NCBI RefSeq assembly: GCF_038594945.1 | Contig: NZ_JBCFYD010000001.1 | Span: 496,001-560,000 of the forward strand | DNA: 64,000 bases | From: Fodinibius sp. Rm-B-1B1-1 | GTDB taxonomy: Bacteria; Bacteroidota; Rhodothermia; Balneolales; Balneolaceae | Reading direction: 5' to 3' | In this document: piece after piece, positions 4,238-29,454 of the stretch | Numbering within the stretch: the stretch's first letter is position 1 | How the letters are laid out: every line of letters begins with the position of its first letter | The notes under the pieces: model-generated | Told to the model about the DNA's origin: nothing | Seen by the model: the letters and a program-made list of their open reading frames with translations, nothing else | The model's database searches: none | Position numbers and translations under genes: made by a program

Positions 4238-4387
4238 AATTTTGTATTTGTTAGAATTGACTTACATAAGCTTTATTAAAATAAGTGACGCCTGAACATT
4301 GAGTTAATCAGTAACTTTAAAACAAAAACAGGTCGCGAGGCTTAACCAAATAGCATCTTCCTTTTTTAAAGAGTTATTCTGATAACT

Positions 4388-5350: not shown

Positions 5351-5441
5351 AAAAATATTTTGGTTCGCGTTGATTTAATTCCTAATTATGTAAAATAGAA
5401 CTTAAAACTTTATGCACCTCCTTTTGAAGAAGTACTTAACA

Positions 5442-7700: not shown

Positions 7701-8717
7701 ATGCCTGAAACGCTGGAAAATATGCCTAACGAAACCCAAGAGCGGGATTACGCCACCTGCCTGCAAGAGCTGGAGCAGGGCCTGCCGATCTTTGGACGCA
7801 TCACCGGTACCACCGACGGGCTCCAGCAAGTTGAGAAGGAGCTCCCCTTTAATTTTCGTCAGCCCTTCAATGTGGTCAAGGCAATATTCAAATTGGACCC
7901 AGGGCTGTATTCTCTACACACCGGCATCGACGAAGATATTGTTATTGGCTTTCGCATTGATCCACCTGACGAGCAATCGGATACCCTGTTACAAGAAACT
8001 ACAAAAGCCAGCAGATCCACTCCTGAAAATTACTACCAGCAACGAGCTCTGCGCCTGGAAGGCGAGCTGCATGACGCCGACCGGAAGATTCGCCAACTCG
8101 TCGATGAAATCATGGGCCTCAAGCGACAGCTATCCGAAGACAAAACGGCTACGCTGCTAACCCATCAAAAAGAGCTGGGCGACCTCAAGGAATCTCACCG
8201 CAACGAAATTGACCGCCTCAAAGAAATTCAACGAAGTAACCTCAAGGCTCTCGAAAAAGAGCTTGGAGAGCTGGAAAAGCTGAAATTCCGCATGGAAATG
8301 GAACAACGAGCTGGTGGCCGAGACGCCGGAAGCCGCATGCTGGATATGCTGGAAGAAAATGCCCCGATGTTTTTTACCGTAATCTCCCAACTGTTTGCGG
8401 GTCAGAGCGCAAGAAATCAGCAAATAAATACGCCGACTGGCACTCCGGATATCAGTGAAGAGCAAGCTAAAGCCATGGCCGAATCTCTTAAAAGCCAACT
8501 TCAACCTACTTCTGGCTCGCTACCCCAACAACCCCATAGCCCCTCTACCGACGAGGCGAGCCAACCCAAAGGTGTCGGGGACCAGACTCCTCGGCACCTT
8601 CCCTCCGACGACAACTCGGAAACTGAGCCCGACGAACTTGGAACACCTGCCACTCTGAATGGCATGTTTGACCCGCCCCACACCAACGGCCACACCGAAC
8701 CAACCATCAGCCTGTAA
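7701..8717 (+). CDS. Coiled-coil protein, first gene of the virus-like block
   Basis: I do not recognise this 338-residue protein. Residues 1-110 look globular. About 113-205 form a long, highly charged coiled coil with regular Leu spacing (RALRLEGELHDADRKIRQL and on). About 210-235 is a short hydrophobic patch (NAPMFFTVISQLFAG), too weak for a membrane span. The last 100 residues are Pro/Ser/Thr-rich, low complexity and probably disordered. The ATG follows repeated ACGYTA elements. Base composition shifts sharply here from AT-rich to balanced, which marks the left side of a new element. It could be a structural or scaffold protein; no function is claimed. Confidence 0.7.
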   Translation: MPETLENMPNETQERDYATCLQELEQGLPIFGRITGTTDGLQQVEKELPFNFRQPFNVVKAIFKLDPGLYSLHTGIDEDIVIGFRIDPPDEQSDTLLQETTKASRSTPENYYQQRALRLEGELHDADRKIRQLVDEIMGLKRQLSEDKTATLLTHQKELGDLKESHRNEIDRLKEIQRSNLKALEKELGELEKLKFRMEMEQRAGGRDAGSRMLDMLEENAPMFFTVISQLFAGQSARNQQINTPTGTPDISEEQAKAMAESLKSQLQPTSGSLPQQPHSPSTDEASQPKGVGDQTPRHLPSDDNSETEPDELGTPATLNGMFDPPHTNGHTEPTISL

Positions 8718-8726
8718 GATTCCACG

Positions 8727-9122
8727 ATGAACCCCGGACAACTAACCCTTTTGAAAATGGCCTTGGAATACTTGGCTGACCAGCCCTGCGGATACGCCTG
8801 CTATGCCAAGCGCATTAAATCCCAGCTGGCTTTGATGCAGCAAGGCGGGCAACCAATCACCGCGACCGACTGGGTCCGGATGGCAAAGATACTTTCTGTG
8901 GAAGCGATAAGCAGGGATATAGGAGCCGAACGCATTGCAAAAACAATATATCCCCTTGTGGATGGATTAGGGCAACACGCTAATACGCTTTGCTATATCC
9001 CTGCCCCTTTCGCTTGTAATCAATTGTTGAGTTTCACGGGCACGACCGTCAGCCCGCAGGTCCGGCGACTGCTCACCGATGTCATCGCTGAGCTGCAAAA
9101 GCTCGTCAAATCCAGCCGGTAA
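8727..9122 (+). CDS. Hypothetical protein, 131 residues
   Basis: A small soluble protein with several Cys in the N-terminal third (CGYACYAKRIKSQL) and helical segments such as ATDWVRMAKILSVEAISRDIG. I cannot assign a family. It starts nine bases after the coiled-coil gene and is probably co-transcribed with it. It lacks the C-terminal membrane segment typical of the next seven small genes. The ATG at 8727 is the first start in the frame. Confidence 0.65.
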   Translation: MNPGQLTLLKMALEYLADQPCGYACYAKRIKSQLALMQQGGQPITATDWVRMAKILSVEAISRDIGAERIAKTIYPLVDGLGQHANTLCYIPAPFACNQLLSFTGTTVSPQVRRLLTDVIAELQKLVKSSR

Positions 9123-9152
9123 TCATATCCATGTCAACGATATCAACAACTA

Positions 9153-10178
9153 TTGAGTAGCAGCTATCCCATACCAACTTCCCGCAACGCAGTCACGACC
9201 CATGGTTCAGTGACGAGCACTAAGGCGGCAGCAAACTCCTCCCAAGGAGATGCTGCCGCCTCTATTATTGCCCACCGCAAGCAATACCCGGGAATCGAAG
9301 GCGTCCTGGAACTGGCTTCCCAGCTTGTTACCAAATATACCGGACGCGAGGATATCCGCGGACTAGCGCTAAAAATTACCCGCAAGGTTCCCAGGAATAT
9401 TAACACCGGTCTTCCTGACCTGCGGAATGTAGATCAAATTGCGGGTGCCATTTACAAGTGGATAACGAAAAATATCAACTACGTGCGCGATCCATGGAAT
9501 ATCGAGCGGATCCAATCCCCCGATGTCACCATCCGGCAAAAAGCCGGAGATTGCGACGACCACGCGATTCTGTCAGCGGCCCTGCTGCAAAGCCTGGGCA
9601 TCCAAACCGGCTTTCGGATTGTCAGCCGAACAGGACGAACCTATGACCATATTTATACCGTTTTCCGATCCCCAGAAGGGTGGAAATCCTTTGATACGAC
9701 CGTTGCTAAATATCCCGGGTTCAGGTTTGACGAGCGGCTGATCAAAAAGTCCAAGCACCTGCCCAACCGGATGCCGGATGGATTAGGCATTGATCCCGTT
9801 ACCCTCACCGCTGCGGCTTCGTCAGCACTGCAAATGGGCGTCACCATGAAACCACTGTTTTCCAAATGGTTTGGCGCCAAAGATAAGGGCGAACGCACCC
9901 AGCGCGGACAATGGCGCGATTACCTGATGGTCCGAGGGGTCCGTTCGGACGTGATTTCATTTTCCCAAAAGGATAACGCCATCCTCCAGCAGTACGCTAT
10001 GGTAATTCAAGAGCACGGACAACCGGCCGTTGATTACCTGAACAAATATGGAAGTTTGGACAACAGCTTTCTGGCCAACCAACAACAATCTCGAAACAAA
10101 AAATGGCTCCTGTACGGCGGACTCTCAGCCGGGCTTCTCACGCTTGGCGGGATCAGCTACTGGGCCCTCAACCATTAA
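9153..10178 (+). CDS. Transglutaminase-like cysteine peptidase-fold protein with C-terminal membrane anchor
   Basis: Residues about 95-185 are a transglutaminase-like domain with a complete triad: C134 in AGDCDDHA, H166 in YDHIY and D181 in FDTT. About 320-338 is a single hydrophobic span (LLYGGLSAGLLTLGGISYWA) ending just before the C-terminus, so the catalytic part would project from a membrane by its tail. The start is a TTG at 9153; the frame has no better ATG, and the resulting N-terminus MSSSYPIP matches MSSSY at the next gene. Transglutaminase-like domains occur in phage and virion proteins as peptidases or cross-linking enzymes. The role is inferred to be virion or cell-wall related. 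Confidence 0.75.
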   Translation: MSSSYPIPTSRNAVTTHGSVTSTKAAANSSQGDAAASIIAHRKQYPGIEGVLELASQLVTKYTGREDIRGLALKITRKVPRNINTGLPDLRNVDQIAGAIYKWITKNINYVRDPWNIERIQSPDVTIRQKAGDCDDHAILSAALLQSLGIQTGFRIVSRTGRTYDHIYTVFRSPEGWKSFDTTVAKYPGFRFDERLIKKSKHLPNRMPDGLGIDPVTLTAAASSALQMGVTMKPLFSKWFGAKDKGERTQRGQWRDYLMVRGVRSDVISFSQKDNAILQQYAMVIQEHGQPAVDYLNKYGSLDNSFLANQQQSRNKKWLLYGGLSAGLLTLGGISYWALNH

Positions 10179-10187
10179 CAACTGTTT

Positions 10188-10601
10188 ATGAGTAGTTCCT
10201 ATCTGCAACCCATTGCTATACAACCCGAAAATGATCAATTGATCATATCCAGCCAGCTTCCCAGTGGTGGACTGGAAGGTTGGGAGGAAGATGATCCCTG
10301 CCGGTATGCCAACCAAAGCTGCAAGGGCAAAATGTTTGGAAAGCTCAAAAGCTGCAGGCGCAAGCGCGAAAAATCGCAAGCCCTCTGCAAAGCTCACGAG
10401 CGTAAGCTAGCTGAGAAGAAGAGAATAGAACAGGAAAAACAGCAGCTCATGACGGCCTTACAGCATAACGTCACCGATACGGCTGCCAAACAAGAGACCG
10501 CATCCACAGCTATGATAGCAGGGGCAGCGGTGGGCGGGGTTGCCATTTTGGGAGCCGCCATCATGTTTGTCGCCAAAAAGAAAAAATTGAAATCCCAATA
10601 A
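10188..10601 (+). CDS. Small Cys-containing protein with C-terminal transmembrane anchor
   Basis: A 137-residue protein beginning MSSSYLQP. It has four Cys spread through a basic region (CRYANQSCKGKMF, CRRKREKSQALC), a charged helix at about 60-95, then one hydrophobic span at about 107-130 rich in Gly and Ala, and a KKKKLKSQ tail. This is a tail-anchored layout. It starts nine bases after the transglutaminase-like gene. I recognise no family. Its place within a series of similarly built proteins suggests a membrane protein of a virion with an internal lipid layer. Confidence 0.7.
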   Translation: MSSSYLQPIAIQPENDQLIISSQLPSGGLEGWEEDDPCRYANQSCKGKMFGKLKSCRRKREKSQALCKAHERKLAEKKRIEQEKQQLMTALQHNVTDTAAKQETASTAMIAGAAVGGVAILGAAIMFVAKKKKLKSQ

Positions 10602-10617
10602 GCATATCCCAATCCCT

Positions 10618-10980
10618 ATGAACAGCAGCTCCTACGATCAGTTAGATTTTTTGCAAACGACCCAGCCGTTTAACTACACAAACAGTTTCCTCCCTCCCGT
10701 GGGATCCACAAGCAGCACCTCAAAGAAAACCAAGTTTGGCAGTATCCTCAATGACCTGTCCAGCTTTTTAACCACAGCGGCCGATACCGCCGTAACTGTG
10801 GATGGAGTTATAAATGGCGGAAAACCTCAATCTGGGGGCACTGGCCTGACGCCCGAGCAACAGATGGCGTTGATGCAAGCCCAGAAGTCAAATGGAAATA
10901 TGACCTCCCTTCTACTTATTGGCGGCGTTGTCGTCGTAGGCGGAGGTATTATGTACACCCTGTTAAAAAAGAAATCCTGA
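10618..10980 (+). CDS. Small tail-anchored membrane protein, 120 residues
   Basis: Begins MNSSSYDQL, similar to the starts of the two preceding genes. It has a Ser/Thr/Gly-rich middle, a short amphipathic helix (FGSILNDLSSFLTTAADTA), and one C-terminal span at about 95-115 (LLLIGGVVVVGGGIMYTLL) followed by KKKS. No family is recognised. The genes on either side are 16 bases or fewer away on the same strand, which indicates one operon. A membrane-associated virion component is the most likely role. Confidence 0.7.
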   Translation: MNSSSYDQLDFLQTTQPFNYTNSFLPPVGSTSSTSKKTKFGSILNDLSSFLTTAADTAVTVDGVINGGKPQSGGTGLTPEQQMALMQAQKSNGNMTSLLLIGGVVVVGGGIMYTLLKKKS

Positions 10981-10981
10981 T

Positions 10982-11293
10982 ATGACCGAAGCTATTCAGA
11001 CAACAACCCATCCGGTTGGGATCTCTCACTTTATTGACGGACACATTCCCAACGGGCGGTATCCCAATCCAACGGCCTCGCAAGAAACCGTGTACCTGCA
11101 ACCCACCGTCCAGCTGCAAGAAGTAGCAAAAGGCGCGGAAGTAACGGGTCAATCCAAGCAAACCCTTTGCGGACGCCTGGCCGAAGAGGATCCCGTCAAA
11201 GGAATTCGCGCGTGGTTTAACCGCAATAAAGCTACGCTGGGATGGATTGCCGGTGGATACCTGGCGCTGCGAATCATAACCCGAAGGAGGTAA
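10982..11293 (+). CDS. Small tail-anchored protein, 103 residues
   Basis: It starts one base after the preceding stop. The N-terminal 65 residues are polar, and WFNRNKATLGWIAGGYLALRI near the C-terminus is a short membrane span followed by ITRRR. The motif is the same polar head, single span and basic tail seen in its neighbours. The stop codon overlaps the strong ribosome-binding sequence AAGGAGG (11284-11290) of the next gene, so translation is probably coupled. No homologous family is recognised. Confidence 0.65.
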   Translation: MTEAIQTTTHPVGISHFIDGHIPNGRYPNPTASQETVYLQPTVQLQEVAKGAEVTGQSKQTLCGRLAEEDPVKGIRAWFNRNKATLGWIAGGYLALRIITRRR

Positions 11294-11296
11294 CCA

Positions 11297-11971
11297 GTGA
11301 GCTATTCTAACTACAGTGACAACGGGTTAGGCTCGGCTTCCATATCCGGCAATATCATAAGCTCGGAAGCCGGTGAACTCCGCATCATCGGACGTCATCC
11401 CGAGCGCGGGCTCCCGAAATCCGGGGTACCCTTTTCAGTAGATGTGGAGGTCGATATCTACCGCACCTTTTGGAACTCGTTCCTTTTTGTCGTCTGCCCG
11501 GATGTAGTGGTTGCCGCCCTGGATCCCCAAAACCGATCAGTCTTAGCGATATCCCGTATTGTTACCAGTATGTGGGATGGCTGTCGCGGCCAAGCCCGAC
11601 TAGTCTTCGGGCGCTCGTTCCGACCAGATCGAAATCATCCCGTCATATTTGAGCTTCACTACAGCAATGTTACGGAGGCAAATATCTCACAGGCCAAGCC
11701 ACTCGCCTCCTCGAACGTGATGACCCTTGATCTGGATATCCAGGAAGGCCAACAAAGTGGAGTGTACGCCCAGCCCACCGAGTCCTGGTATGAAATCAAC
11801 CTACCGGACCCTGTGGGTGCATTCAGCGGCGTCAACAGTACGCTCACCAAAGCCCTGTGGCTGATTGGTATTGGCGCGGGCGCGTACTTCCTGGCACCTC
11901 TGATGCCCGGAGTTCGAGACAGCGTAAAACAAATGGCTGGGACGAAACAGAAGGAGAAATCTGATGAATGA
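11297..11971 (+). CDS. Beta-rich protein with C-terminal transmembrane anchor
   Basis: This 224-residue protein starts at GTG, chosen because AAGGAGG lies six bases upstream and because its N-terminus MSYSNYSD resembles the Ser/Tyr starts of nearby genes. Residues 20-165 alternate short hydrophobic and polar stretches and look like a beta-sandwich. About 185-203 is a hydrophobic span (ALWLIGIGAGAYFLAPL), followed by a basic, Lys-rich tail. It overlaps the next gene by eight bases. A membrane-anchored structural protein is plausible; no family is assigned. Confidence 0.65.
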   Translation: MSYSNYSDNGLGSASISGNIISSEAGELRIIGRHPERGLPKSGVPFSVDVEVDIYRTFWNSFLFVVCPDVVVAALDPQNRSVLAISRIVTSMWDGCRGQARLVFGRSFRPDRNHPVIFELHYSNVTEANISQAKPLASSNVMTLDLDIQEGQQSGVYAQPTESWYEINLPDPVGAFSGVNSTLTKALWLIGIGAGAYFLAPLMPGVRDSVKQMAGTKQKEKSDE

Positions 11972-12374
11972 GTTAATCGAAGGCCGAGACTACCAGATCG
12001 TCGATGACGGGATGGGTGATCTTAGCAGTTACCTGCGCCAAACCAGTCGAAACGCATTTAAGAAAGCAATCGGGCTAGCCGACCGTGCCCTGAGCGGGCG
12101 TAAAGGACAAGCTGCTACTACGGCCCTTGTCCTGGCTGATCTGACCAAAGACAGGCGCTCCTTCCAGCAAGTATTCAACGGAAATGCCGACGTCATCAAT
12201 CAGTACTTCGAGCACGTCGATCTGCAGGCGGTAAGCGATATGATCGGACTCCAAGATTCGGTCGCTAAAAGCAAGCCTGCGACAATAATCAAACATGCAG
12301 GTATTCTCTCGGCCGGTATTGCCATCGGTGTAGCCGGCCTTTCCCTATATAACAGAAAACGATCTTCAACATGA
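11964..12374 (+). CDS. Helical protein with C-terminal transmembrane anchor, 136 residues
   Basis: It overlaps the previous gene by eight bases and the next by four (ATGA), so translation is coupled. The head is mostly helical (about 20-100), and a single span near 110-128 (AGILSAGIAIGVAGLSLY) precedes the basic tail NRKRSST. No enzyme motif is visible. It shares the head-span-basic-tail layout with five other proteins of this block, and probably sits in the same membrane. Confidence 0.65.
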   Translation: MNELIEGRDYQIVDDGMGDLSSYLRQTSRNAFKKAIGLADRALSGRKGQAATTALVLADLTKDRRSFQQVFNGNADVINQYFEHVDLQAVSDMIGLQDSVAKSKPATIIKHAGILSAGIAIGVAGLSLYNRKRSST

Positions 12375-12694
12375 CTCTTAGCATAGGCGACAAAGGTCCG
12401 CAGGTCATGCACCTGCAATCAGCACTGAAAGCCCTAGGTATCGGGCTTCCCAAATATGGCGTTGATGGCATCTTTGGCCCCGAAACACAGGCAGCCGTCA
12501 AGCAAGCCCAACAAAAATTGAGACTACCACCGAGTGGAACAGCTGATGAAATATTACTCAAAAGGCTCGGCATTACTCAGCAATCCCTACAAGTGCCAAC
12601 AAAAGGGGCCTTACCCAAACCAGCCCTCCTTGTAATAGGGACCATCGCCATTATTGGAATTGGAATCGCAATCAAACGAACGAAACGAGATTAA
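12371..12694 (+). CDS. Peptidoglycan-binding domain protein with C-terminal membrane anchor
   Basis: Residues 1-68 are a PG_binding_1 domain: the typical GDKGPQVMHLQSALKALGI and YGVDGIFGPETQAAVKQAQ. About 82-100 is one hydrophobic span (LLVIGTIAIIGIGIAI), followed by KRTKRD. The combination would hold a cell-wall-binding head on a membrane, as expected for a virion protein involved in entry or egress at the peptidoglycan layer. The start ATG overlaps the preceding stop, and the next gene follows after one base. Confidence 0.8.
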   Translation: MTLSIGDKGPQVMHLQSALKALGIGLPKYGVDGIFGPETQAAVKQAQQKLRLPPSGTADEILLKRLGITQQSLQVPTKGALPKPALLVIGTIAIIGIGIAIKRTKRD

Positions 12695-12695
12695 T

Positions 12696-13949
12696 ATGGA
12701 ATCCATGACTGCCCAGCAGCTTGCAAAACTGAATATCAAAGGCATAACAATAGCCCAACCCTACGGGCGACTGCTCGGCGAACCCGAGAAGAATGCCGTC
12801 ATTTTTATCTGGGGCGAAAAAGGAGCCGGTAAATCAACGATGAGCCTGGGACTCGCTGACGCATTAGCCGAACATGGCCGCATCGAATATATCCCCGCCG
12901 AAGAACATTTTGGTAAAACCTTGGTCGACCGCGTAAAACGCCTGGGAGCTACCCACCGGAACCTGAATTTTACCAAATGGAAATCGATTCAGGCCCTCAA
13001 AGAAATTCTGCTTAAAAACAGGTCCTTCGCCTGCATCCTGGATTCCATTTCGGTGATTGATGCCAACGCGAAGGAAACGGTCGAGCTAGCCCAATGGTGT
13101 CGCGAAAACGGAATCATGTTCGTCATGGTCTCCCATGCCACCAAAGACGGACAGTACAAAGGCAACACTAGCATCGCCCATGAGTGTGATATCGAAATTA
13201 AGGTTACCAAAGAAGGCGGAGCCGAAACCGAAAAGAATCGCTACCGTGAACTTACTGCTATCGCCGTACCCTTTACGGCCCAAGACCGTGAAGGAGCACC
13301 AGCTAACCCTGCCACTAAAGAAGCAAGCAAGTCGGACACCCGAGAAAACCCGGTGGATACCCCTTTTAAGATTACCCTCAAAGAGATCGACAAGCTCCAC
13401 AAAATTCGATCCTGGAAACGCATCAACTCCATGTTTGGAAGCAAAATGCCCTGCTACGGGTCCAAGCATTCCGGGGAATCCGAAAACGCCCACCTGTCTA
13501 TCCGGTACACAGCCGACTATCCCAAGAAGCGGTACATCATGGACTTGCTGCTGGACGGCCACCTGGAATACCAAGCATGCACGGAAGGCAAAGGAGGCGG
13601 GCTCAAAGCGTGCTGGAAAAAGTTAGTCAACAAATATGGCGACCTGGAAATCCGAATTTATAAGCAGGACCACGCCAAAGTCGTGCTAGGCGCCAAAGAG
13701 TACAAACGCCAGGAACGCGCGCTTGGCAAAAAAGAAAAATCTACTGCGACTAACCCACCTGCGCCAAAGACCAAGAAGAAACCAGCTTCTAAAAAGAAAC
13801 CAACTCCTGTTAAGCGATCAAAGAAAACTACTACCAAAAAGAAGGACAACAGTACATCTGACGGGAAACCCCAGCAGCGAGTAGACATCGAAGCGGCCAA
13901 AGAAAGTCAGGCTAAATTGGACGCCTTCCTAACCAAAGTATTAGGCTAA
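12696..13949 (+). CDS. RadA/RecA-like ATPase with Lys-rich tail
   Basis: The start chosen is the ATG at 12696, one base after the preceding stop. Walker A is GEKGAGKST at 40-48; a Walker B-like strand is SFACILDSISVID. The segment MFVMVSHATKDGQYKG followed by IAHECDIEI, with KNRY further on, closely follows the RadA/Sms pattern. After residue about 200 the protein is unlike RadA: a linker with DTRENPVDTP at 214-223, a second unrecognised domain (235-345), and a Lys/Thr/Pro-rich basic tail (345-390) that could bind DNA. It is the only stand-alone NTPase in the block, so it may serve recombination or genome packaging. Confidence 0.75.
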   Translation: MESMTAQQLAKLNIKGITIAQPYGRLLGEPEKNAVIFIWGEKGAGKSTMSLGLADALAEHGRIEYIPAEEHFGKTLVDRVKRLGATHRNLNFTKWKSIQALKEILLKNRSFACILDSISVIDANAKETVELAQWCRENGIMFVMVSHATKDGQYKGNTSIAHECDIEIKVTKEGGAETEKNRYRELTAIAVPFTAQDREGAPANPATKEASKSDTRENPVDTPFKITLKEIDKLHKIRSWKRINSMFGSKMPCYGSKHSGESENAHLSIRYTADYPKKRYIMDLLLDGHLEYQACTEGKGGGLKACWKKLVNKYGDLEIRIYKQDHAKVVLGAKEYKRQERALGKKEKSTATNPPAPKTKKKPASKKKPTPVKRSKKTTTKKKDNSTSDGKPQQRVDIEAAKESQAKLDAFLTKVLG

Positions 13950-13953
13950 CCCC

Positions 13954-16900
13954 ATGCGAGACAATCCGATTGTTACTCCTTTTGAAGACATTACAACTGA
14001 GGACTACCCCGGCATTTTTGGCGATTTTGATGGGGACGGGATCCCCAATGCTGACGATCCCAACCCACAACTGGCTGGCGACACCGAAACTGTCGAAGAA
14101 ACCAAGCTTACCGACGAAATCAAACAGTTGATCGAATTGCGAGGGGACTACCAGCAGGCCTTGGACGAGGTAACCAGCAAGCTCAAAGGGCTGCAACCCG
14201 AAGCCACCGTAAAGGGCCGAGTAAAATCTCCCTATTCGGTCATCAATAAATTGCGTCGCAAGCGCATTAAAGGAAATATCAAGCAGGCTAATCCTGGTGA
14301 GCTCTATACTCAGGGGCTGACCGATATGGCCGGATGCATGATCGTACTGTCTGGTCAAACCGAGCTGAACCAGGTGGTAAAACAAATTGTATCAGGAGCA
14401 ATCGGAGAAGTATTTGAACATGAAGATAAATACGCCGAACCCGTCGGTGGCTATCGAGCGCATCACTTCATCGTGATGGCTGGGGAGGCCGGAGATATTC
14501 CCGTCGAGATTCAGGTAAAAACGCAGCGGATGGCACAAATTGCAAGTGCCGCCCACATGCCGTACAAAAATGGCAGACTCAATACCCAACGAATGAACCA
14601 GCTCACCGACCTGGCCTGGCAAGCTGATCAAGGTGATGAGCAGGCAGCCAGTTCTATCGACTCCCTCCTTGGAAATCCAGAAAAACTGACCAGCAAATTG
14701 ACGACCCGTGAGAATCCTTCGAGCGACCTCCAACAGCTCCAAGAGTCATTCACTGAAACCGTGATGAAACTGGCCCTGGCCTTTTCCCTCGATAAGTTTC
14801 CCACAGAGCACCGCGAGCAGGCATTGGAATTATTTCGAGATCACGGGCAAGTCATCGGCGTCGATTTTAACCAGGTTTTCTCGGCAGCCCAACAGGAAGC
14901 AAAAAAACCTGAAAAAGAAGACGATCAATCATACCAACCCTCCATGGATCGGCCGGGAGAAGCCAAATATGGAAGCCGTTTTTCCGGCATCCATCTGGAA
15001 AAACTTGCCCCCATTAAACTCTCGAAGTCCGAACGCCGGAAAGCCAACGAGGCGGCACTGGCCGTCTTGGAAAAAGAGGACCGGGCGATTACCGAATCGG
15101 ACCTGGATCTGCTTCGCAGGTACACGGGCGCCGGTGGACTCGGATATGGCGAAGACGCAACCGGAACCGAACGCGGTCTGCTTAACGAGCATTACACCTC
15201 CTACCCGTTGGTCAAACTCATCTGGGATAAACTCCAAACCATGGGCGTGGATGGGGGCAACATTTTAGAACCCGGGGCGGGCGTAGGCAATTTTGCAGGC
15301 TTCCTTCCCAACCGCCAGACCTATCGCATGCTGATGGTCGAGCGTTCTGCAGTAAGCTCCCGCATTGCGGGGCTGCTATACCCGAGCCAGCTGGTCCGCC
15401 ACGAAAACTTTGCCCAGACCGACCTGTCGCTATACAACTTGACCGGAGCCATAGGCAATGTCCCCTTTGGAGATATCAAAATTCATACCCAGCGAGACCC
15501 ACTGGCTCCCCTTAATCCACGTATCCACGACTACTTTATCCTGAAGTCCCTGGACGCTCTTCAGCCCGGCGGGTTTCTAGCAGTGATTACTTCGGTCGGC
15601 ACGATGGACAAGAAGGATCCGGCCATTCGACAGGCCATGGTCCAGCGCGCCCGATTTGTGGGTGCTTACCGGCTCCCGTCCACTGCATTCAAAGACAATG
15701 CCGATACACTGGTTACAACGGATCTGATCTTGTTTCAGAAATACCCCGATGTTGACGGCGAAACCCATCCTGACGTAAGCAGCGAATTAAATCAGCTCTT
15801 TGCCTACCAGGATCTCGCGGTAAGTATCACCGAACATAAGGACCAGTCTTACGGGGCCTATTATAATCCGTACTACCATAAATATCCCCAGCAGGTATTA
15901 GGTGAGCACATTCAGGGGCACGACATGCAGTTTTTGACCCGCATGGGCGTAAAAGGCCAAGTTGATGAGGCTTTGACCGGTAAGGTTCTTGGAGATGGTC
16001 TTCGCTTCCCATACCCGCTTCCGGGGAAGATGCCGTTCTACCGGATCCCCGATGAGGGCGTGCGCCTGGAGACGACCCGCGATTATTACGCCGGGAATAT
16101 TGTCTACCATGATGAGAAATTCTACGAAAAACAGCGCCACTATTTCAAACCTGTTACCGTAGGTGGATCGGATAAAGCGGGTGACGGCCTTCGTGCCAAG
16201 ATAAACTCGGCCTGCCAAATGCTAGACAAATACGATGATTTCGTAACGGCGCTGGCTCAAGACAGCAAGCAAAAAGAGCCGCTTCGCGGGGAGTTTAAGG
16301 AGCTACTCGAAAGCCACATCAATAGCTACGGCATTCCCGACGAAGACGAGGATATCCGCGAGGTATTTCGCTACGACAACCGGTTGTATAAGCTTACGAC
16401 CTTTGTGAAACGCGATCCCATCAGCGGAGAGCTGGTCTATGCCGATATTATCGATGCCGACTCGATGTTCAACCGCAACTACGTACCAGCGGTTTCCGAC
16501 TCAAATGACCTGGCCGAAATTGCCATGTACGGCCGCTCCATCGGCGAAGAGCTGACCCTTGATTTCTACCAGTCCACCTACAAAGGAGGCACAGCCAGCC
16601 GGACAGAACTTACTAAAGCAATCGAAAATCACCCTGACTTCTTTTACAATCCCGAGACCAATAATTACGAGTTTCGTTATCAATACCTGGCCGGTAATGT
16701 CCGCCGCAAGCTGGAAATAGCCGAAGACAATCAGCTGGAGAAAAATACCGAAGCCCTAAAGGCAGTTCTCCCGGAGTGGATTGATGCCTATAGCATTACC
16801 GTCGATCCGCGCCACATTTTCACCTACTTGCCAACGAAAGTCCTTACCCAGTGGATAAAAGATGAGCTGGGCTACCGAGACGTACATATCGGACTCGTCA

Positions 16901-19900
16901 AAGACAAAGCCGATCTTGGTAACCGCTTCTATATGAAACTTCGCAAAGGCGGGCGGTATATTAAAAATGGAGAAGAAACGGCCGATGACTGGAACCAAGG
17001 TTGGGGCGAGACGCCGTTTAGCAAGATTATTAATAACTATATTCAAGATTCCAGCTTCCCGCTGGTCTTCTACGACGAGGACGACAACGTGCTCCCGAAT
17101 ATGACGCTCAAACGAGCCGAAGAAAAAGGCTTTACAGCTTTGATCGAGCGTTCCCGTGCCAAACAGCGCACCCATAACGACCAGATGCTCACGCGCGTGC
17201 CCCAAAAGTTCAACCAATGGGTACGCACCAAAGCCTCTACCGAAATTCGTGAACTCATTGAGCAGGCCTATAACCACGAGTATAATGCTCATATCAACCC
17301 TCAATTTGATGGAGCCACTCTTCGAGTGCGCGGGATGTCGGACACCTTCTATGGCGTCAAAGATTTTGCGGTGTACAAACACAACCGCGCAGTGGCCGAA
17401 AAGTTGGTTTGGAACGGGCGCGGAGCCAACTGCCACGACGTCGGCGCCGGTAAAACGCTCTCGGCCATTATTACCTCCCAGGTTCTGCTGCAACAGGGCG
17501 CTTGCCACAAACCGATGTTTGTGGTGCCCGGCAAAGTACAGGAAAAGTGGGTCGAAGAGTACGCCATGCTGTTCCCGGAAGCCAAAATCCTCAATATGAA
17601 AATGACGGGCTCCGAACGCCACAAGGAACTCACTATGGCCCAGCTTTACAACTGGGATGCGATCTTTATTGCTGACCATGCGTTCAAGAGTCTGCCGCTA
17701 TCTCCATCGGTGCAACAGAATATGTACAGCGAGCGCGTAGAATACTTTGATCAGATGATTGATAGTTTCGACGAGCTTATCGAAGAAGATGATGCCCTCA
17801 GCTCCACGGCCAAAAAGTCGATGGTCACGCGCCTGGAGAAGATGAAAGAAGAATGGGAGGCCAAGCTCCGCAATGTAGCAAGTGCGAAGCGACTAGACAC
17901 CGACATCTTTTTTGACGAGCTCGGTGTGGACGCCCTGTTCTTTGACGAGGCCCACTTTTACAAAAACGCGCTGGGCAGCGCCAAAGCGGCCAAGCTCGGC
18001 ATTGCCGCTAATAAACCCTCCCAGAGAGCCGAAGACGCCCTCCAAAAAACGAAATGGCTGTTTTCCAAAATAGGCTTTAAAAACGTCTTTGTCTTGACTG
18101 CTACGCCAGTCGTGAATTCCCCGGTGGAGGTATGGCACATGCTCAACCTCTGCGCCCCGGACCTGCTCGAAAAATACCAGATTGCCAACTTAGACAACTT
18201 TATCAACCAGTTTGTCCGCGAGGAAGAAAAGATCGTCAAAAAGACCAACGGCGAATACCGAACCGAGCGCGTAGTGGCCGGATACTATAACCTCCCAGAA
18301 ATGCGGGCGATTATCGACGAGGTTATGGACATCAAAAGCTATGACCAACTAGTGGGATTCTACGAGAAGTTTCCAGACCTGCTCAAAGATGATAACGGTA
18401 ACCTTGTAAAAGATGAACAGGGCCAAACTAAAGTGTTAAAGCCAAAGTTCAAGCGCCCCGAGGCCGAAACCAAACAGCAGGTTATTGAGCCCAGCGAAAT
18501 TCACAAATTGTTATTCGACGATATCATCCTCCGGGCCGATAACATCTTGGACTGCATGCGCCAACGCGGATGCCAGACCAAAGACAATTTCCTGGTCATT
18601 ACCGGCGATGGCAGCAAAATTGCGACCGATCTGCGCGTCTATGACCACAGCTTCGCGGGCGTAGATGGCAAGTTTATGAAGCTCGGAGCACTGGTGAATA
18701 ACGTCACCCAAAGTTATACTACCCGCGCAAACCCTGCTCCTAGCAGAGTACCGGAAAGCATTTATGGCGATTATTTTTCCAAAGTAACATCTGCCCCAGC
18801 CAGAGAAAATCCGAACCCATACTTTGGCCAACCCCGCCACACCCTCATTAAAGAACTCAAATCTCTGGGATACTTCGAAGAGGTAGCCGGTGAAATTGAA
18901 GCCACCGAAGGAGACCTCCACGCAGTGCCCGTCGGCAAACAATTCTTGTTCAATAAAATCGAAAAACAGCGTGAGTTGCTTTCCGACGGGTCGGACGCCA
19001 TGGAAGAAACCTTTGACCGAGCGGTGATGATTGTCGAGGCCCTGTCTGGGACCCGCGAAAATCCGGCTGCCCCATCCTTTCGCAACCAAATCATCTTCTG
19101 CGACTGGATCTCCGTAGAAGGCCAAAAAGGCGGAAGCTACCACCAGCTTATTAAGCAAGAATTGGCAAAAGCAGGTATTCCGGCCAAAGAAATCGCCATT
19201 ATTAACGGATCGATTATTGGCACCAACCCCAAAGGCGGCGACTATTTTGTCTCTTCATCCGACGATAAGGAAGCCCTCAAAAAAGAGGTGCAGGACGATT
19301 TCAATATTGGCAAGTACCGAGTGCTGATTGGCAACCAATCCATCGCCGAAGGCATGAACCTGCAAAAATGGACCACCGACCTGCATCATATGGACGTGCC
19401 CTACACGCCCTCCCAGATTCAGCAGCGCAACGGGCGCGGGCTCCGGCAGGGCAACCAACACGGGAAAGTGAACATCCATTTTTATCTGATGAAGGACTCT
19501 TTTGATCAGTACCGCCTGGAGCTGGTCAGCAAGAAGCAAAGCTGGATCGACGAACTCTTCTTTGGCGACGGTCGGGAAACCTCTGCCGACTCCGAGGGAG
19601 AGTCTCTGGAATACGAGCAGATGGTGGCCGCCACCAACTCCGATCCCCGAGTCAAAGAATTCTTCCAATCCAAAGCCCAAACCAAGGTATTGAAGGCCCG
19701 CATCGACTCCCTGCTAAGCGAGACACAGCGTCTGGAGTCTTCCCTTGGGCAAGCAAGCCAGGACGTGACCAAACGTTCCGAGCGAATGGAGTCTGCTATC
19801 CAAAGAGAACAAGCACTAATTGATTCAAAACTACCAACTTCAGCCACCGAAGCCCTTGACCAAGGACTCATTCGCATCGGCTGGTTAGACTACAGCGGGG

Positions 19901-21207
19901 AGATCGGAACCATTGAAAACAACTTGTCTTCCGACGGCAAACGCATTCCCCGGTTCCGCCACGAGCTGGCTTTGGAAGTGCCCAAAAATAACGCCAATGG
20001 CCGGGTGCTGTTTAACCTGATTCCTGATCCGAACGCACCTAATCGAAGTTTCTACAACAAGATTAAGTGGAGCTCCATCAAGCAGATGGCCGGCGACCAG
20101 CTAAATAACCAATTTGGCTGGGGTATGGATGAGCCCGTCCAATCGGGCCAAAGCCTGGCGGGCAACAAAGGGAATATTATTGCGGACGAATCTGACTTTT
20201 ACGCCCATTACGAGATAGATATCGAGGCCGAAAAACAGAAAACGGGCCACGACGAAGCCGAAGTAACCTACGATCAGATCAAGCAGCAGCTGGGCATGTA
20301 CAAGACCGAGCGGTGGCTGCCGATTATCAAGCGTAAGCTGGCGGGGCTCTTCCTGGCCCTGGAACGAGGCTGGCAGCAATCGGCCCAGGCCCGTATTCAA
20401 CAAATCACCTCAGAGCTGAAACGATCGGAGAAAACCTTGCGAGAACTGGAGGCTACCCACCAGCAAACCCAAAAAGAGTTGGAGCAAGCCCAATTGGATC
20501 TCACCTCCAACCAAAACACCGTAACCAAATTGCAAGATGTGGTCAATGAGCTGGTCAAGACCAAATTTTCTGACCGTACGGAACTTTATGAAGAACTGAA
20601 TCGGATAGCTCCCACCTATGGGGTGAAAGGAACCGTTCGCGTGCGTGAGGTTGGTATTTATCGCGATAGTTCACCGGAGGAAAAAATACGCCCGAATCGA
20701 TCTAGTAAACAGACAACGAAATCTCTCCCCATGCCTCTGAAAACCTTATTTGGCGACCCACTGGTGTACGCGGGCTCCGTTGGTGAACTGGAGTTTATTG
20801 ACACCAAAGGATTTATGCAGCGCATACTTTCTGAGGATGAGGATCTAGCAATGGTTATCGACGCCGAGGGAACCACGCTGTTTGCCTTCCCGACCCAGCG
20901 CATGAAGCTTCTAAAAGGAGCCTTTGACAACGGAGATGCCGAACAGATGTACCAGGAGTTCCACCATTTCCCGGCCGACGGCTACGACTACGAACTATTT
21001 CCACCGGCTGATGCTGACCTCGTCTCCATCGGTCACGCCGAGCGCATCATGTACAGCAGCGACAAGGTGATCTACTCGGGCGACAAGAAAGGAGACGACC
21101 ACCATTATTACCACTATTTCGACGACGGCAAGCGTCCTGTCTTTCAATATGGAGACGTATATATCATTACGAACCTGAATATTGACGGCCGAGGCATCCT
21201 TAATTAA
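13954..21207 (+). CDS. Giant 2417-residue fusion: RelA/SpoT-like domain, N6-DNA methylase, SNF2-type helicase
   Basis: Residues 24-36 hold DFDGDGIPNADDP, a calcium-loop-like motif. Residues 85-207 match the RelA/SpoT nucleotidyltransferase fold: GRVKSPYSVINKL (88-100), LTDMAGCMIV (122-131), GGYRAHHF (165-172), VEIQVKTQ (184-191) and HMPYK (201-205), with the catalytic-position D124 and E185 kept. A class I methylase follows, with LEPGAGVGNF (438-447) and motif IV-like GNVPFGD (501-507). The helicase has Walker A HDVGAGKT (1161-1168), DEAH (1331-1334), TATP, and motif VI QQRNGRGLRQG (1823-1833). Coiled coil covers about 1930-2290, and the C-terminal tail is unassigned. Methylase-helicase giants (DarB-like, polyvalent proteins) protect phage and plasmid DNA from restriction. 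The N-terminal RelA/SpoT-like fusion is unusual. Confidence 0.85.
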   Translation: MRDNPIVTPFEDITTEDYPGIFGDFDGDGIPNADDPNPQLAGDTETVEETKLTDEIKQLIELRGDYQQALDEVTSKLKGLQPEATVKGRVKSPYSVINKLRRKRIKGNIKQANPGELYTQGLTDMAGCMIVLSGQTELNQVVKQIVSGAIGEVFEHEDKYAEPVGGYRAHHFIVMAGEAGDIPVEIQVKTQRMAQIASAAHMPYKNGRLNTQRMNQLTDLAWQADQGDEQAASSIDSLLGNPEKLTSKLTTRENPSSDLQQLQESFTETVMKLALAFSLDKFPTEHREQALELFRDHGQVIGVDFNQVFSAAQQEAKKPEKEDDQSYQPSMDRPGEAKYGSRFSGIHLEKLAPIKLSKSERRKANEAALAVLEKEDRAITESDLDLLRRYTGAGGLGYGEDATGTERGLLNEHYTSYPLVKLIWDKLQTMGVDGGNILEPGAGVGNFAGFLPNRQTYRMLMVERSAVSSRIAGLLYPSQLVRHENFAQTDLSLYNLTGAIGNVPFGDIKIHTQRDPLAPLNPRIHDYFILKSLDALQPGGFLAVITSVGTMDKKDPAIRQAMVQRARFVGAYRLPSTAFKDNADTLVTTDLILFQKYPDVDGETHPDVSSELNQLFAYQDLAVSITEHKDQSYGAYYNPYYHKYPQQVLGEHIQGHDMQFLTRMGVKGQVDEALTGKVLGDGLRFPYPLPGKMPFYRIPDEGVRLETTRDYYAGNIVYHDEKFYEKQRHYFKPVTVGGSDKAGDGLRAKINSACQMLDKYDDFVTALAQDSKQKEPLRGEFKELLESHINSYGIPDEDEDIREVFRYDNRLYKLTTFVKRDPISGELVYADIIDADSMFNRNYVPAVSDSNDLAEIAMYGRSIGEELTLDFYQSTYKGGTASRTELTKAIENHPDFFYNPETNNYEFRYQYLAGNVRRKLEIAEDNQLEKNTEALKAVLPEWIDAYSITVDPRHIFTYLPTKVLTQWIKDELGYRDVHIGLVKDKADLGNRFYMKLRKGGRYIKNGEETADDWNQGWGETPFSKIINNYIQDSSFPLVFYDEDDNVLPNMTLKRAEEKGFTALIERSRAKQRTHNDQMLTRVPQKFNQWVRTKASTEIRELIEQAYNHEYNAHINPQFDGATLRVRGMSDTFYGVKDFAVYKHNRAVAEKLVWNGRGANCHDVGAGKTLSAIITSQVLLQQGACHKPMFVVPGKVQEKWVEEYAMLFPEAKILNMKMTGSERHKELTMAQLYNWDAIFIADHAFKSLPLSPSVQQNMYSERVEYFDQMIDSFDELIEEDDALSSTAKKSMVTRLEKMKEEWEAKLRNVASAKRLDTDIFFDELGVDALFFDEAHFYKNALGSAKAAKLGIAANKPSQRAEDALQKTKWLFSKIGFKNVFVLTATPVVNSPVEVWHMLNLCAPDLLEKYQIANLDNFINQFVREEEKIVKKTNGEYRTERVVAGYYNLPEMRAIIDEVMDIKSYDQLVGFYEKFPDLLKDDNGNLVKDEQGQTKVLKPKFKRPEAETKQQVIEPSEIHKLLFDDIILRADNILDCMRQRGCQTKDNFLVITGDGSKIATDLRVYDHSFAGVDGKFMKLGALVNNVTQSYTTRANPAPSRVPESIYGDYFSKVTSAPARENPNPYFGQPRHTLIKELKSLGYFEEVAGEIEATEGDLHAVPVGKQFLFNKIEKQRELLSDGSDAMEETFDRAVMIVEALSGTRENPAAPSFRNQIIFCDWISVEGQKGGSYHQLIKQELAKAGIPAKEIAIINGSIIGTNPKGGDYFVSSSDDKEALKKEVQDDFNIGKYRVLIGNQSIAEGMNLQKWTTDLHHMDVPYTPSQIQQRNGRGLRQGNQHGKVNIHFYLMKDSFDQYRLELVSKKQSWIDELFFGDGRETSADSEGESLEYEQMVAATNSDPRVKEFFQSKAQTKVLKARIDSLLSETQRLESSLGQASQDVTKRSERMESAIQREQALIDSKLPTSATEALDQGLIRIGWLDYSGEIGTIENNLSSDGKRIPRFRHELALEVPKNNANGRVLFNLIPDPNAPNRSFYNKIKWSSIKQMAGDQLNNQFGWGMDEPVQSGQSLAGNKGNIIADESDFYAHYEIDIEAEKQKTGHDEAEVTYDQIKQQLGMYKTERWLPIIKRKLAGLFLALERGWQQSAQARIQQITSELKRSEKTLRELEATHQQTQKELEQAQLDLTSNQNTVTKLQDVVNELVKTKFSDRTELYEELNRIAPTYGVKGTVRVREVGIYRDSSPEEKIRPNRSSKQTTKSLPMPLKTLFGDPLVYAGSVGELEFIDTKGFMQRILSEDEDLAMVIDAEGTTLFAFPTQRMKLLKGAFDNGDAEQMYQEFHHFPADGYDYELFPPADADLVSIGHAERIMYSSDKVIYSGDKKGDDHHYYHYFDDGKRPVFQYGDVYIITNLNIDGRGILN

Positions 21208-21225
21208 CCCTTATCGAACCGACCT

Positions 21226-21747
21226 ATGACCCAACGAATATTTGCAAAAAATCCAACTCACTTGGATGTAATCGAAAACCCAACAACCCCAAAACCTGCA
21301 ACTATGGCAAAACAACTAACAACCGAAAAAGCTGTCAGCGAATTTAAGCAGCAGCTTATCACTGCCGGATACATTGTGGGCGGCCAGGCAATTGGTGCGC
21401 AGCTTAATGGGCTGGCCGTACCCGCTATCCTTGGCGGAAGCTCGGCTACCGTCCAGCAAGCGGCCCGCGTTGGCCTCCCGCTCACCCTCGGCATGGCCTT
21501 TACCATGTTCACCAAAAACAAACACCTTCGTGGCCTAGCCATGGGACTCGGCGTGCAAGGCGTGATGGAGCTGATCAAGTTCGTCATGCCCGACTGGACC
21601 CCCTCCCAGGGCCTTATGGAAGGAAGCGACTACCTGTGGGATGAGGAGAACTTAACTCCCCAACCCACGCCACCAGTGCAACTTCCCGTGGAAACCGGCC
21701 ACGTCTCTCAAATCGAAACCGTATTTGAAGATACCGTGGAGGTGTAA
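21226..21747 (+). CDS. Membrane protein with NP-motif N-terminus, 173 residues
   Basis: The N-terminus has FAKNPTHLDVIENPTTP, two xNP motifs like those in the giant protein and the ATPase. Residues about 45-75 and 85-115 contain moderately hydrophobic segments (AGYIVGGQAIGAQLNGLAV; LPLTLGMAFTMF and GLAMGLGVQGVMELI), so two spans or re-entrant helices are likely. The C-terminal 45 residues are Pro/Glu-rich. A possible second start is MAKQLTTEK at residue 27. It lies between the giant gene and the capsid candidates, and may be a virion membrane protein. No family is recognised. Confidence 0.65.
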   Translation: MTQRIFAKNPTHLDVIENPTTPKPATMAKQLTTEKAVSEFKQQLITAGYIVGGQAIGAQLNGLAVPAILGGSSATVQQAARVGLPLTLGMAFTMFTKNKHLRGLAMGLGVQGVMELIKFVMPDWTPSQGLMEGSDYLWDEENLTPQPTPPVQLPVETGHVSQIETVFEDTVEV

Positions 21748-21854
21748 TTGGCAACCCATTTTTCTCATAGCTCTTGCTGACTAGGGACTGCCTGCGGGAA
21801 CAAGCAGTAGGCCACAACGGCCCCACTTACAACCCTTTTAACTAACAACGAACT

Positions 21855-22475
21855 ATGAGTAACCAAATTTCTAAAAAAGCTATTGTCCCCGCCAGCGCGC
21901 GCATCAAAACCTATTTTGATACCCAGCAAGTCACCCAAAACGGCGCTGTCGTTAACTTCTTTCCGCCCAACTCGACGCGGAAAATCACCCGCAACAATTA
22001 CGTAGGTAATCCCTTCCCGGGCGAACTCAAGCGACGTATCCTCGCGCTTTCCTTCGAGGTGACCAAGCAATTCATCGAGGACGATGAGGCCAACGGCATC
22101 GATGCCCGCGGGATCGTCAACTCGCTAAAAGATGCGGGCGTCATTTTACAGGCCGATAATGACAACAAAGAGTTCCTGCGCGTGCCCATCTCCAAGCATT
22201 CCAACTTTTCCGGCACCGACGTTCAGTTGGTAGCTGGCACGGCGAATACCGTAGATGCTCCGGTGGTCTTCAAGCGCATCGCTTCTCTTAAATCCGCTGA
22301 CGAGTACCGCTTGGCCGATCCATTCGATCTGGCGGTCAATCAGACCTTGTCACTGTCAGTTCACTTCGAGGACTCCTCGGTGTTCCCCAGTGACGAAAAC
22401 TGGACGACTTCTGGCCAAGGCTTGCTGTACCTGCGCGCCAGTATTGTCGTAGCTGAAATGAAGCCCGAAAAATAA
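21855..22475 (+). CDS. Candidate capsid protein (beta-rich, 206 residues)
   Basis: The protein has no membrane span and no enzyme motif. It is rich in short alternating strands (QNGAVVNFF, DVQLVAGTANTV, NQTLSLSVHF, LLYLRASIVVAEM), which looks like a jelly-roll fold of the size of single-barrel capsid proteins. It is preceded by a 107-base gap, unusually long for this block, and followed by a strong hairpin, consistent with separate high-level expression. It sits directly before a second beta-rich protein of 259 residues, recalling the small plus large capsid pair of sphaerolipovirus-type viruses. The assignment is by size, fold impression and context only. Confidence 0.5.
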   Translation: MSNQISKKAIVPASARIKTYFDTQQVTQNGAVVNFFPPNSTRKITRNNYVGNPFPGELKRRILALSFEVTKQFIEDDEANGIDARGIVNSLKDAGVILQADNDNKEFLRVPISKHSNFSGTDVQLVAGTANTVDAPVVFKRIASLKSADEYRLADPFDLAVNQTLSLSVHFEDSSVFPSDENWTTSGQGLLYLRASIVVAEMKPEK

Positions 22476-22482
22476 CCTCTCT

Positions 22483-22513
22483 AACCGGCAGCGGCCCGGG
22501 GCCGTTGCCGGTT
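22483..22513 (+). terminator. Strong GC hairpin between the two capsid candidates
   Basis: A 14-base-pair stem with one G-U pair and a three-base loop: left arm AACCGGCAGCGGCC at 22483-22496, right arm GGCCGTTGCCGGTT at 22500-22513. It lies eight bases after the 206-residue gene stop. It is followed by ATTCAATATTG rather than a full T-run, so it may be an attenuator or an mRNA-stabilising stem rather than a complete terminator. Confidence 0.6.
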
Positions 22514-22548
22514 ATTCAATATTGCTCTAATCCTTTAATACATCAGCG

Positions 22549-23328: not shown

Positions 23329-23330
23329 CT

Positions 23331-23750: not shown

Positions 23751-23751
23751 C

Positions 23752-24303: not shown

Positions 24304-24307
24304 CTCC

Positions 24308-26807: not shown

Positions 26808-26844
26808 CTCCATTCAACGATAACCAACTCATTACAACTCTATC

Positions 26845-29377: not shown

Positions 29378-29424
29378 AAGGGCTGATATTACAAATATAT
29401 TGGGGTTAGAAGAATATCCGGTAC

Positions 29425-29439: not shown

Positions 29440-29454
29440 ATGTTGTTTTGAATA

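What the first reader, a model, noticed from the sequence alone, without database searches (positions are those of the whole stretch)
13954..14577. RelA/SpoT-like nucleotidyltransferase domain at the N-terminus of a phage-type methylase-helicase giant
Residues 85-207 carry the five linear motifs of the RelA/SpoT fold (GRVKSPYS, LTDMAGCM, GGYRAHHF, VEIQVKTQ, HMPYK) in correct order and spacing, including the Asp and Glu positions needed for catalysis. Fusion to a DNA methylase and helicase is, to my knowledge, undescribed. It could make alarmones, pyrophosphorylate tRNA as toxic SAS enzymes do, or act as a counter-defence.
Basis: partly seen in the sequence, partly recalled or inferred. Interest (0 to 1): 0.9.

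Follow-up and report, generated by a model that had tools for sequence, protein, structure and literature searches.

The report
RelA-type enzyme in phage payload protein
A bacterial virus hidden in this chromosome, a relative of a tailless phage with an inner membrane, encodes a giant protein probably carried inside its particle, and the first module of that protein is an apparently intact relative of the enzymes that make bacterial stress signals, which suggests that the virus injects a stress-signal-type enzyme together with its DNA.

Summary
Residues 88-207 of the 2417-aa ORF (13954-21207) match Pfam RelA_SpoT at 56 bits (cut-off 27), and the module folds like RelP/RelQ. The catalytic residues are invariant in all 14 full-length homologues aligned. 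dN/dS is mostly 0.02-0.13.

The context differs from a tailed phage. The ORF lies in a conserved 21-kb cassette of a provirus of roughly 46 kb related to SSIP-1, a tailless, membrane-containing phage. SSIP-1's protein at the same place (gp43) is annotated as a virion structural protein and shares our giant's C-terminal ~110-140 residues. Our giant is therefore probably a virion-borne polyvalent protein: RelA + DarB-like methylase + SNF2 helicase. Related proviruses carry other payloads in this format.

The RelA module belongs to a mobile-element clade separate from the cellular enzymes sampled (support 99/97; also IMG/VR viruses and an archaeal plasmid). That clade lacks the usual adenine-stacking Arg; so does the active toxin Apk2.

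RelA domains in phage polyvalent proteins were described in 2017, so this is a new variant of a known kind. The fusion to methylase-helicase, the tailless-virus setting and conserved R-x-N-P tetrapeptides near module borders look new. Substrate, delivery and processing are untested.

The parts
13954..21207 (+). Giant polyvalent protein, 2417 aa: RelA/SpoT module + DarB-like adenine methylase + SNF2 helicase + shared C-terminal domain
   Evidence: 20 copies in 17 of 129 genomes of the order, all in frames of 2410-2525 aa
14023..14061 (+). aa 24-36, D-x-D-x-D-G...DD stretch (calcium-loop-like) preceding the SYNTH domain; shared with IMG/VR and archaeal relatives
   Evidence: alignments; sequences
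14113..14703 (+). aa 54-250, RelA/SpoT-type pyrophosphokinase (SYNTH) module with flanking helices
   Evidence: PF04607 aa 88-207; AF2 + Foldseek; dN/dS mostly 0.02-0.13
14707..14718 (+). aa 252-255, R-E-N-P right after the RelA module; candidate border/processing or docking motif
   Evidence: R252 and N254 invariant; 5 RxNP in giant vs 0.24 expected
14986..15783 (+). aa 345-610, DarB-like adenine methylase (EPGAGVGNF, GNVPF)
   Evidence: PHROG DarB-like / DNA methyltransferase matches; motifs conserved
17221..18243 (+). aa 1090-1430, SNF2 helicase lobe 1 (GAGKT, DEAH, TATP)
   Evidence: PF00176; motifs invariant
18724..18735 (+). aa 1591-1594 RxNP motif
   Evidence: conserved in all relatives
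18802..18813 (+). aa 1617-1620 RxNP motif
   Evidence: conserved in all relatives although flanks differ
19054..19065 (+). aa 1701-1704 RxNP motif
   Evidence: conserved in all relatives
19066..19833 (+). aa 1705-1960, SNF2 helicase lobe 2 (QQRNGRG)
   Evidence: PF00271
20761..21204 (+). aa 2270-2417, C-terminal domain ending ID-G-RGILN, shared with SSIP-1 gp43 and with other provirus payload proteins; candidate virion-docking domain
   Evidence: hhalign E 7.3e-13, prob 97.8 to gp43; BLASTP E 7e-24 to L080 protein
7701..28816 (+). One-strand structural/lysis cassette conserved around the giant in the other loci of the family whose flanks were fetched
   Evidence: synteny table
9153..10178 (+). 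Transglutaminase-like protein, homologue of SSIP-1 structural gp34
   Evidence: PF01841; E 5e-33
12371..12694 (+). Peptidoglycan-binding protein with C-terminal hydrophobic segment
   Evidence: PF01471
12654..13949 (+). ATPase, homologue of SSIP-1 structural ATPase gp40; carries one RxNP at aa 230
   Evidence: E 2e-24, 2e-29
21226..21747 (+). Conserved membrane-type protein directly downstream (position of SSIP-1 structural gp44), with FAKNP/IENP near its N-terminus
21855..22475 (+). Capsid protein candidate, homologue of SSIP-1 structural gp45/gp46
   Evidence: E 7e-17 and 5e-7
22549..23328 (+). Capsid protein candidate, homologue of SSIP-1 structural gp47
   Evidence: E 1e-6; fold prediction failed
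25759..26319 (+). Lytic transglycosylase, homologous to SSIP-1 ORF54
   Evidence: PF01464; E 2e-33

Best explanation
The domain is the N-terminal enzymatic payload of a virion-borne polyvalent protein of an SSIP-1-like tailless membrane phage that is integrated in a Balneolota (Aliifodinibius/Fodinibius) chromosome. The giant is made late with the capsid genes and packaged in the particle through its C-terminal domain. It enters the next cell with the DNA. There the methylase-helicase part modifies the incoming DNA against restriction, as proposed for P1 DarB. The RelA-type module, perhaps cut free at the R-x-N-P motif that follows it, transfers pyrophosphate from ATP to a nucleotide or RNA 3' end and so damps host transcription, translation or alarm circuits during takeover. 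SHOWN here by computation: RelA family and fold, intact catalytic residues, purifying selection, provirus context, homology of the C-terminus to a protein annotated as structural, payload swapping in relatives. INFERRED: packaging of this giant, injection, cleavage, the exact acceptor (a guanosine-type alarmone slightly favoured, because the G-loop keeps GY-x-A-x-H and not the GxN of adenosine enzymes) and the benefit to the virus.
For: PF04607 56 bits; AF2/Foldseek match to RelP, RelQ, Rel, CapRel; catalytic and ligand residues invariant; dN/dS mostly 0.02-0.13 in the module. Cassette 7701-28816 conserved and homologous to SSIP-1 ATPase gp40, gp34, gp45-47 and ORF54 in the same order around gp43; SSIP-1 gp43 annotated 'DNA methyltransferase, structural protein', with a homologous C-terminus. 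Tyrosine integrase and replication protein at C1:479118-480269 and 481829-483964 give int-to-lysis about 46 kb, against 43.8 kb for SSIP-1. N-terminal slot holds ART-PolyVal in an order relative; the same C-terminal domain ends proteins that carry other payloads. One viral protein has ART-PolyVal + RelA, and in another virus a DarB-like gene lies two genes from the RelA-module gene.
Against: No experiment on any member of this clade. The adenine-stacking Arg is Met. Virion location is an annotation for SSIP-1 gp43, which shares only the C-terminus with our giant and has a different methylase arrangement without the helicase motifs. The capsid fold could not be confirmed. Two of five RxNP motifs lie between the two helicase lobes, where cutting would split the helicase. 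No attachment repeats were found. No close relative of the module or the capsid protein turned up in IMG/VR by peptide patterns.
Confidence: 0.6

Rival explanations
1. The module is a tRNA 3'-CCA pyrophosphokinase (toxSAS type) that stops translation in the infected cell.
For: RelA fold; CapRel is among the structural matches; phage-borne members of this class exist (PhRel, cited in PMC11782079).
Against: In FaRel2 the Arg of DxxGxR helps to hold the adenine of ATP and, by the authors' inference, the terminal adenine of tRNA; it is absent here. Sequence profile ranks RelP/RelQ far above CapRel (1e-9 against 0.02). The tRNA-binding N-terminal Lys-Arg pair could not be mapped.
Confidence: 0.2
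2. The module makes (p)ppApp, like the phage MuF toxin Apk2, and drains ATP.
For: Lacks the syn2 Arg as Apk2 does (RYT in place of AVR; PMC12226406); the viral relatives even have Thr at this site.
Against: Syn3 is GYRAHH (His kept), not Apk's GxN, and syn4 is ExQVKT, not the YH form.
Confidence: 0.2
3. Counter-defence: the module is not used for its product but binds or titrates a host alarmone, Rel or a CapRel-like sensor.
For: Polyvalent proteins often carry counter-defence parts (DarB, ArdC-like); the Arg change might weaken ATP binding.
Against: All catalytic positions, not only ligand-binding ones, are invariant across homologues down to about 47% identity over the module.
Confidence: 0.12
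4. A decayed or domesticated element: the RelA module and giant no longer act in any virus.
For: Proviruses decay; a relative (G011) has lost most of the cassette.
Against: 20 uninterrupted copies of 2410-2525 aa in the order, dN/dS far below 1, integrase and replication gene present.
Confidence: 0.07

Closest known systems
Polyvalent proteins with RelA/SpoT domains in phages of Spirochaetes and epsilonproteobacteria (Iyer et al. 2017, PMC5512222)
   Same: RelA/SpoT domain as one module of a large multidomain mobile-element protein thought to be delivered with DNA; the same paper defines the DarB methylase-SNF2 dyad
   Different: Here in a tailless SSIP-1-like provirus of Balneolota, fused N-terminally to the dyad; the passages read name no such fusion (the architecture figure could not be read)
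Phage P1 DarB
   Same: Adenine methylase + SNF2 helicase, virion-borne antirestriction protein; DarB-like PHROG matched at 4.5e-170
   Different: The DarB descriptions read here name no RelA domain; here RelA is the N-terminal module and a SSIP-1-type C-terminal domain is present
SSIP-1 gp43 (Salisaeta icosahedral phage 1, NC_017983)
   Same: Same genomic place between ATPase and capsid genes, methylase, homologous C-terminal ~110-140 residues; annotated structural
   Different: No RelA or SNF2 match found; has a ParB_N match; little similarity outside the C-terminus
Apk2 / MuF-RelA polymorphic toxins of temperate phages (PMC12226406, PMC5576092)
   Same: Phage-encoded pyrophosphokinase proposed to be loaded in the head and injected; lacks the same syn2 Arg
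   Different: MuF fusion in tailed phages, GxN G-loop, encoded with immunity genes; none of these found here
Small alarmone synthetases RelP/RelQ
   Same: Closest solved folds and sequences
   Different: Free-standing cellular enzymes with the DxxGxR Arg; separate branch

Membership tests
RelA/SpoT synthetase (PF04607) | Profile score over curated cut-off | tested here: met
   56.3 bits vs 27
RelA/SpoT synthetase (PF04607) | Catalytic Asp and Glu, syn1 RxK..S, G-loop Tyr, ExQ, His | tested here: met
   D124, E185, R89/K91/S95, Y167, Q187, H171, H201 invariant in 14
RelA/SpoT synthetase (PF04607) | Arg of DxxGxR stacking on adenine | tested here: not met
   Met in all 14; Thr/Ser in viral and archaeal relatives. 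Also absent in active Apk2, so not strictly defining
RelA/SpoT synthetase (PF04607) | RelA-like fold | tested here: met
   AF2 mean pLDDT 71 (weak at 1-53 and 101-122), Foldseek E 3.5e-10 to RelP
RelA/SpoT synthetase (PF04607) | Pyrophosphotransfer activity | not testable with these tools
   needs enzyme assay
DarB-like methylase-helicase polyvalent protein | Adenine methylase + SNF2 with intact motifs | tested here: met
   phrog_10089 E 4.5e-170; EPGAGVGNF, GAGKT, DEAH, TATP, QQRNGRG conserved; catalytic motif is NVPF not NPPF
DarB-like methylase-helicase polyvalent protein | Present in the virion | not testable with these tools
   only by homology of C-terminus to SSIP-1 gp43, annotated structural
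SSIP-1-like tailless membrane phage | Homologous ATPase and structural genes in the same order | tested here: met
SSIP-1-like tailless membrane phage | Vertical beta-barrel capsid proteins | tested here: inconclusive
   sequence homology to SSIP-1 gp45-47 only; AF2 failed, pLDDT 34
MuF polymorphic toxin (Apk2) | MuF domain with C-terminal toxin | tested here: not met
   no MuF match in Pfam or PHROGs scan of the ORF; RelA is N-terminal
toxSAS toxin-antitoxin | Cognate antitoxin gene next to the toxin | tested here: inconclusive
   neighbours are an ATPase and a membrane-type protein conserved with the cassette; no known antitoxin identified

The most novel reading that the evidence does not exclude
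Tailless membrane phages of the SSIP-1 kind use a general injected-payload format: swappable enzymatic modules (RelA, ART, methylase-helicase, ArdC-like, ParB-like) strung between R-x-N-P processing or docking sites and ended by a common C-terminal virion-docking domain (ending RGI/LLN). The RelA module is a founder member of a mobile-element-specific pyrophosphokinase clade with an altered nucleotide site and possibly a new acceptor.
Probability: 0.3. Interest if true: 0.8.

Novelty: new variant of a known kind. Interest (0 to 1): 0.6.

Why it matters
It would extend injected effector proteins, known mainly from tailed phages and conjugative elements, to tailless membrane phages, and show a virus delivering a stress-signal-type enzyme physically coupled to its antirestriction machine. 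The clade-wide loss of a residue thought important for ATP binding, under strong purifying selection, makes a clear biochemical question. The module borders and the shared C-terminal domain give testable handles on how such viruses load and release payloads.

Tried and rejected
Conjugative-element origin: considered after the lytic transglycosylase and ATPase matches, rejected because the ATPase and capsid genes match SSIP-1 and the 37754-39820 'ATPase' is a P-type metal pump. Tailed-phage origin: no portal, terminase or tail-assembly protein recognised among the cassette proteins scanned. Attachment repeats and empty site: none found; G011 proved to be a deleted provirus, not an empty site. 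Close relatives of the module in IMG/VR with single-family patterns: none; the mixed alignment A4 worked. RelA hits in other phage records: four were opened, two were long bacterial Rel enzymes and two free small synthetases, not fusions. A phylum-wide PF04607 search was swamped by housekeeping Rel.

Full report
CHECK OF THE OBSERVATION. The ORF 13954-21207 encodes 2417 aa. Pfam RelA_SpoT matches residues 88-207 (E 4.6e-15, 56 bits, cut-off 27); the PDB search finds RelP, RelQ and Rel. The genome has one other RelA_SpoT protein, its housekeeping 764-aa Rel on contig 2. Among 14 full-length homologues (46-93% identical over the N-terminal 270 residues) R89, K91, S95, K99, D124, G127, Y167, H171, E185, Q187, H201, Y204, K205 and also M129 are invariant. 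dN/dS over the RelA domain and its helices is mostly 0.02-0.13 (0.17 for one distant pair), of the same order as in the other domains. AlphaFold gives a confident core (pLDDT 85-95 over most of 61-250, poor at 1-53 and 101-122), and Foldseek ranks RelP, RelQ, RelSeq and CapRel, E down to 3.5e-10.

WHERE IT SITS. The host is a Balneolota (Aliifodinibius/Fodinibius). The giant recurs in 17 of 129 genomes of the order (20 copies, all in frames of 2410-2525 aa), always near full length. In the loci whose flanks I fetched it lies in one syntenic one-strand cassette, window 7701-28816, at different chromosomal sites. The cassette's ATPase best matches SSIP-1 gp40 (2e-24). The transglutaminase-like, two capsid-candidate and transglycosylase genes match SSIP-1 gp34, gp45/46, gp47 and ORF54 in the same order. 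SSIP-1 is a tailless icosahedral phage with an internal membrane and two major capsid proteins (PMC6356626, PMC4958249). At the giant's position SSIP-1 has gp43, annotated 'DNA methyltransferase, structural protein'. Left of the window lie a tyrosine recombinase and a replication protein, homologous to ones beside the cassette in relatives. From integrase to lysis genes is about 46 kb, close to SSIP-1's 43.8 kb. Between them lie defence genes: type IIG restriction, Gabija GajA/GajB, an AbiE-like pair (called by eye) and others. I conclude that this is a provirus, with ends not mapped.

ANATOMY OF THE GIANT. An N-terminal tail with D-x-D-x-D-G...DD; RelA module (54-250); a linker starting with RENP; DarB-like adenine methylase; SNF2 helicase with all motifs conserved (PHROG DarB-like 4.5e-170); and a C-terminal domain that ends RGILN. 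That last domain is homologous to the C-terminus of SSIP-1 gp43 (hhalign probability 97.8, E 7.3e-13) and of two other provirus proteins in relatives, of 1017 and 1400 aa. In those, the cassette's ATPase is itself fused to other payloads (ArdC-like and ParB-like, by eye only) before the same terminus. In an order relative the N-terminal slot holds ART-PolyVal instead of RelA (68 bits). So the payload is swappable while the C-terminus is constant.

R-x-N-P. The tetrapeptide occurs 5 times in the giant (0.24 expected; none of 2000 shuffles reached 5), once in the ATPase, 3 and 5 times in the 1017- and 1400-aa payload proteins, and not at all in the flanking proteins tested. It is kept in relatives even where flanking residues differ (one relative has NS at one site). 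It brackets the RelA module (aa 2 and 252) and, in L080, the borders of the ATPase and the ArdC-like and ParB-like segments. Processing sites or docking motifs are the obvious ideas; neither is shown. Two of the giant's sites lie between the helicase lobes.

THE RELA CLADE. A mixed alignment recovered seven IMG/VR contigs, six with the same D-x-D-x-D-G + SYNTH module, and an archaeal plasmid carries one too. All seven viral proteins pass the PF04607 cut-off, and one has ART-PolyVal and RelA together. In L086 a DarB-like gene lies two genes upstream of the RelA-module gene, a split counterpart of our fusion. The tree puts the 14 mobile-element domains on one side of a 99/97 branch, apart from the sampled long Rel and RelQ/RelP-type enzymes; the archaeal row is long-branched and its exact place unsure, and only seven outgroup rows were used. 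All 14 lack the DxxGxR Arg (Met, Thr or Ser). In FaRel2 that Arg stacks on adenine (PMC11782079), but active Apk2 has RYT for AVR (PMC12226406). The Arg loss is therefore compatible with catalysis. The G-loop GY-x-A-x-H and ExQ[VIL]KT resemble guanosine enzymes more than Apk2's GxN and YH.

MECHANISM. Most likely the giant is packaged (C-terminal domain), enters with DNA, its methylase-helicase protects DNA, and its RelA module pyrophosphorylates a cellular nucleotide or RNA to damp host functions. Shown: family, fold, conservation, context, homology to an annotated structural protein. Inferred: packaging of this protein, injection, cleavage, acceptor, benefit.

KNOWN OR NEW. RelA/SpoT domains in phage polyvalent proteins, said there to be only in phage-type ones, and the methylase-SNF2 dyad were reported in 2017 (PMC5512222); RelA-like MuF toxins are established. 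New here, as far as the searched library and collections show: the covalent RelA-methylase-SNF2 fusion, its home in SSIP-1-like proviruses, the mobile-element SYNTH clade without the Arg, and the RxNP/RGILN payload format. Hence a new variant of a known kind.

Noticed in passing
window 14707-14718, 18724-18735, 18802-18813, 19054-19065, and 12654-13949 (aa 230); L079:5085-8135; L080:3392-7591: Conserved tetrapeptide R-x-N-P, strongly over-represented in the giant, the ATPase and related payload proteins and often at domain borders; the downstream membrane protein has K-N-P/x-N-P near its N-terminus.
   Followed up: partly
L085:7107-11882, L087:6462-11303: IMG/VR RelA-module proteins carry 8 and 15 copies of AKGG spread between segments (about 0.1 expected), perhaps an analogous border or processing motif in another virus group.
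   Followed up: partly
L074:5674-8685 (LC711081): An archaeal plasmid protein of 1003 aa has the same calcium-loop-like stretch plus RelA module (not listed by Pfam) and a JAB-like HTHP...S..D stretch seen by eye.
   Followed up: partly
L090:11261-18816 and window 48-7472: Defence cargo between replication gene and structural cassette: type IIG restriction, Gabija GajA/GajB, AbiE-like pair, a TIR-effector-like match and DUF4365/TPR genes; a different set sits at this place in each relative.
   Followed up: partly
L080:3392-7591, L079:5085-8135 (G006:C4, G009:C5): A second type of related provirus in which the ATPase is itself fused to ArdC-like and ParB-like payloads and to the same C-terminal domain.
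   Followed up: partly
L092 (G011:C39): A relative with the same flanks but a deletion from the start of the cassette (window 7960) to near its lysis genes (27012): a decayed provirus at the same place.
   Followed up: partly
window 28823-39820: Metal-resistance genes (ArsR-type regulator, cation efflux, multicopper oxidase, P-type ATPase) adjoin the cassette; efflux genes also lie downstream in several relatives.
   Followed up: no
L084-L088: IMG/VR viruses of about 50-79 kb encode this RelA module, with P-loop ATPases nearby and few recognisable structural genes: possibly another poorly described virus group.
   Followed up: no
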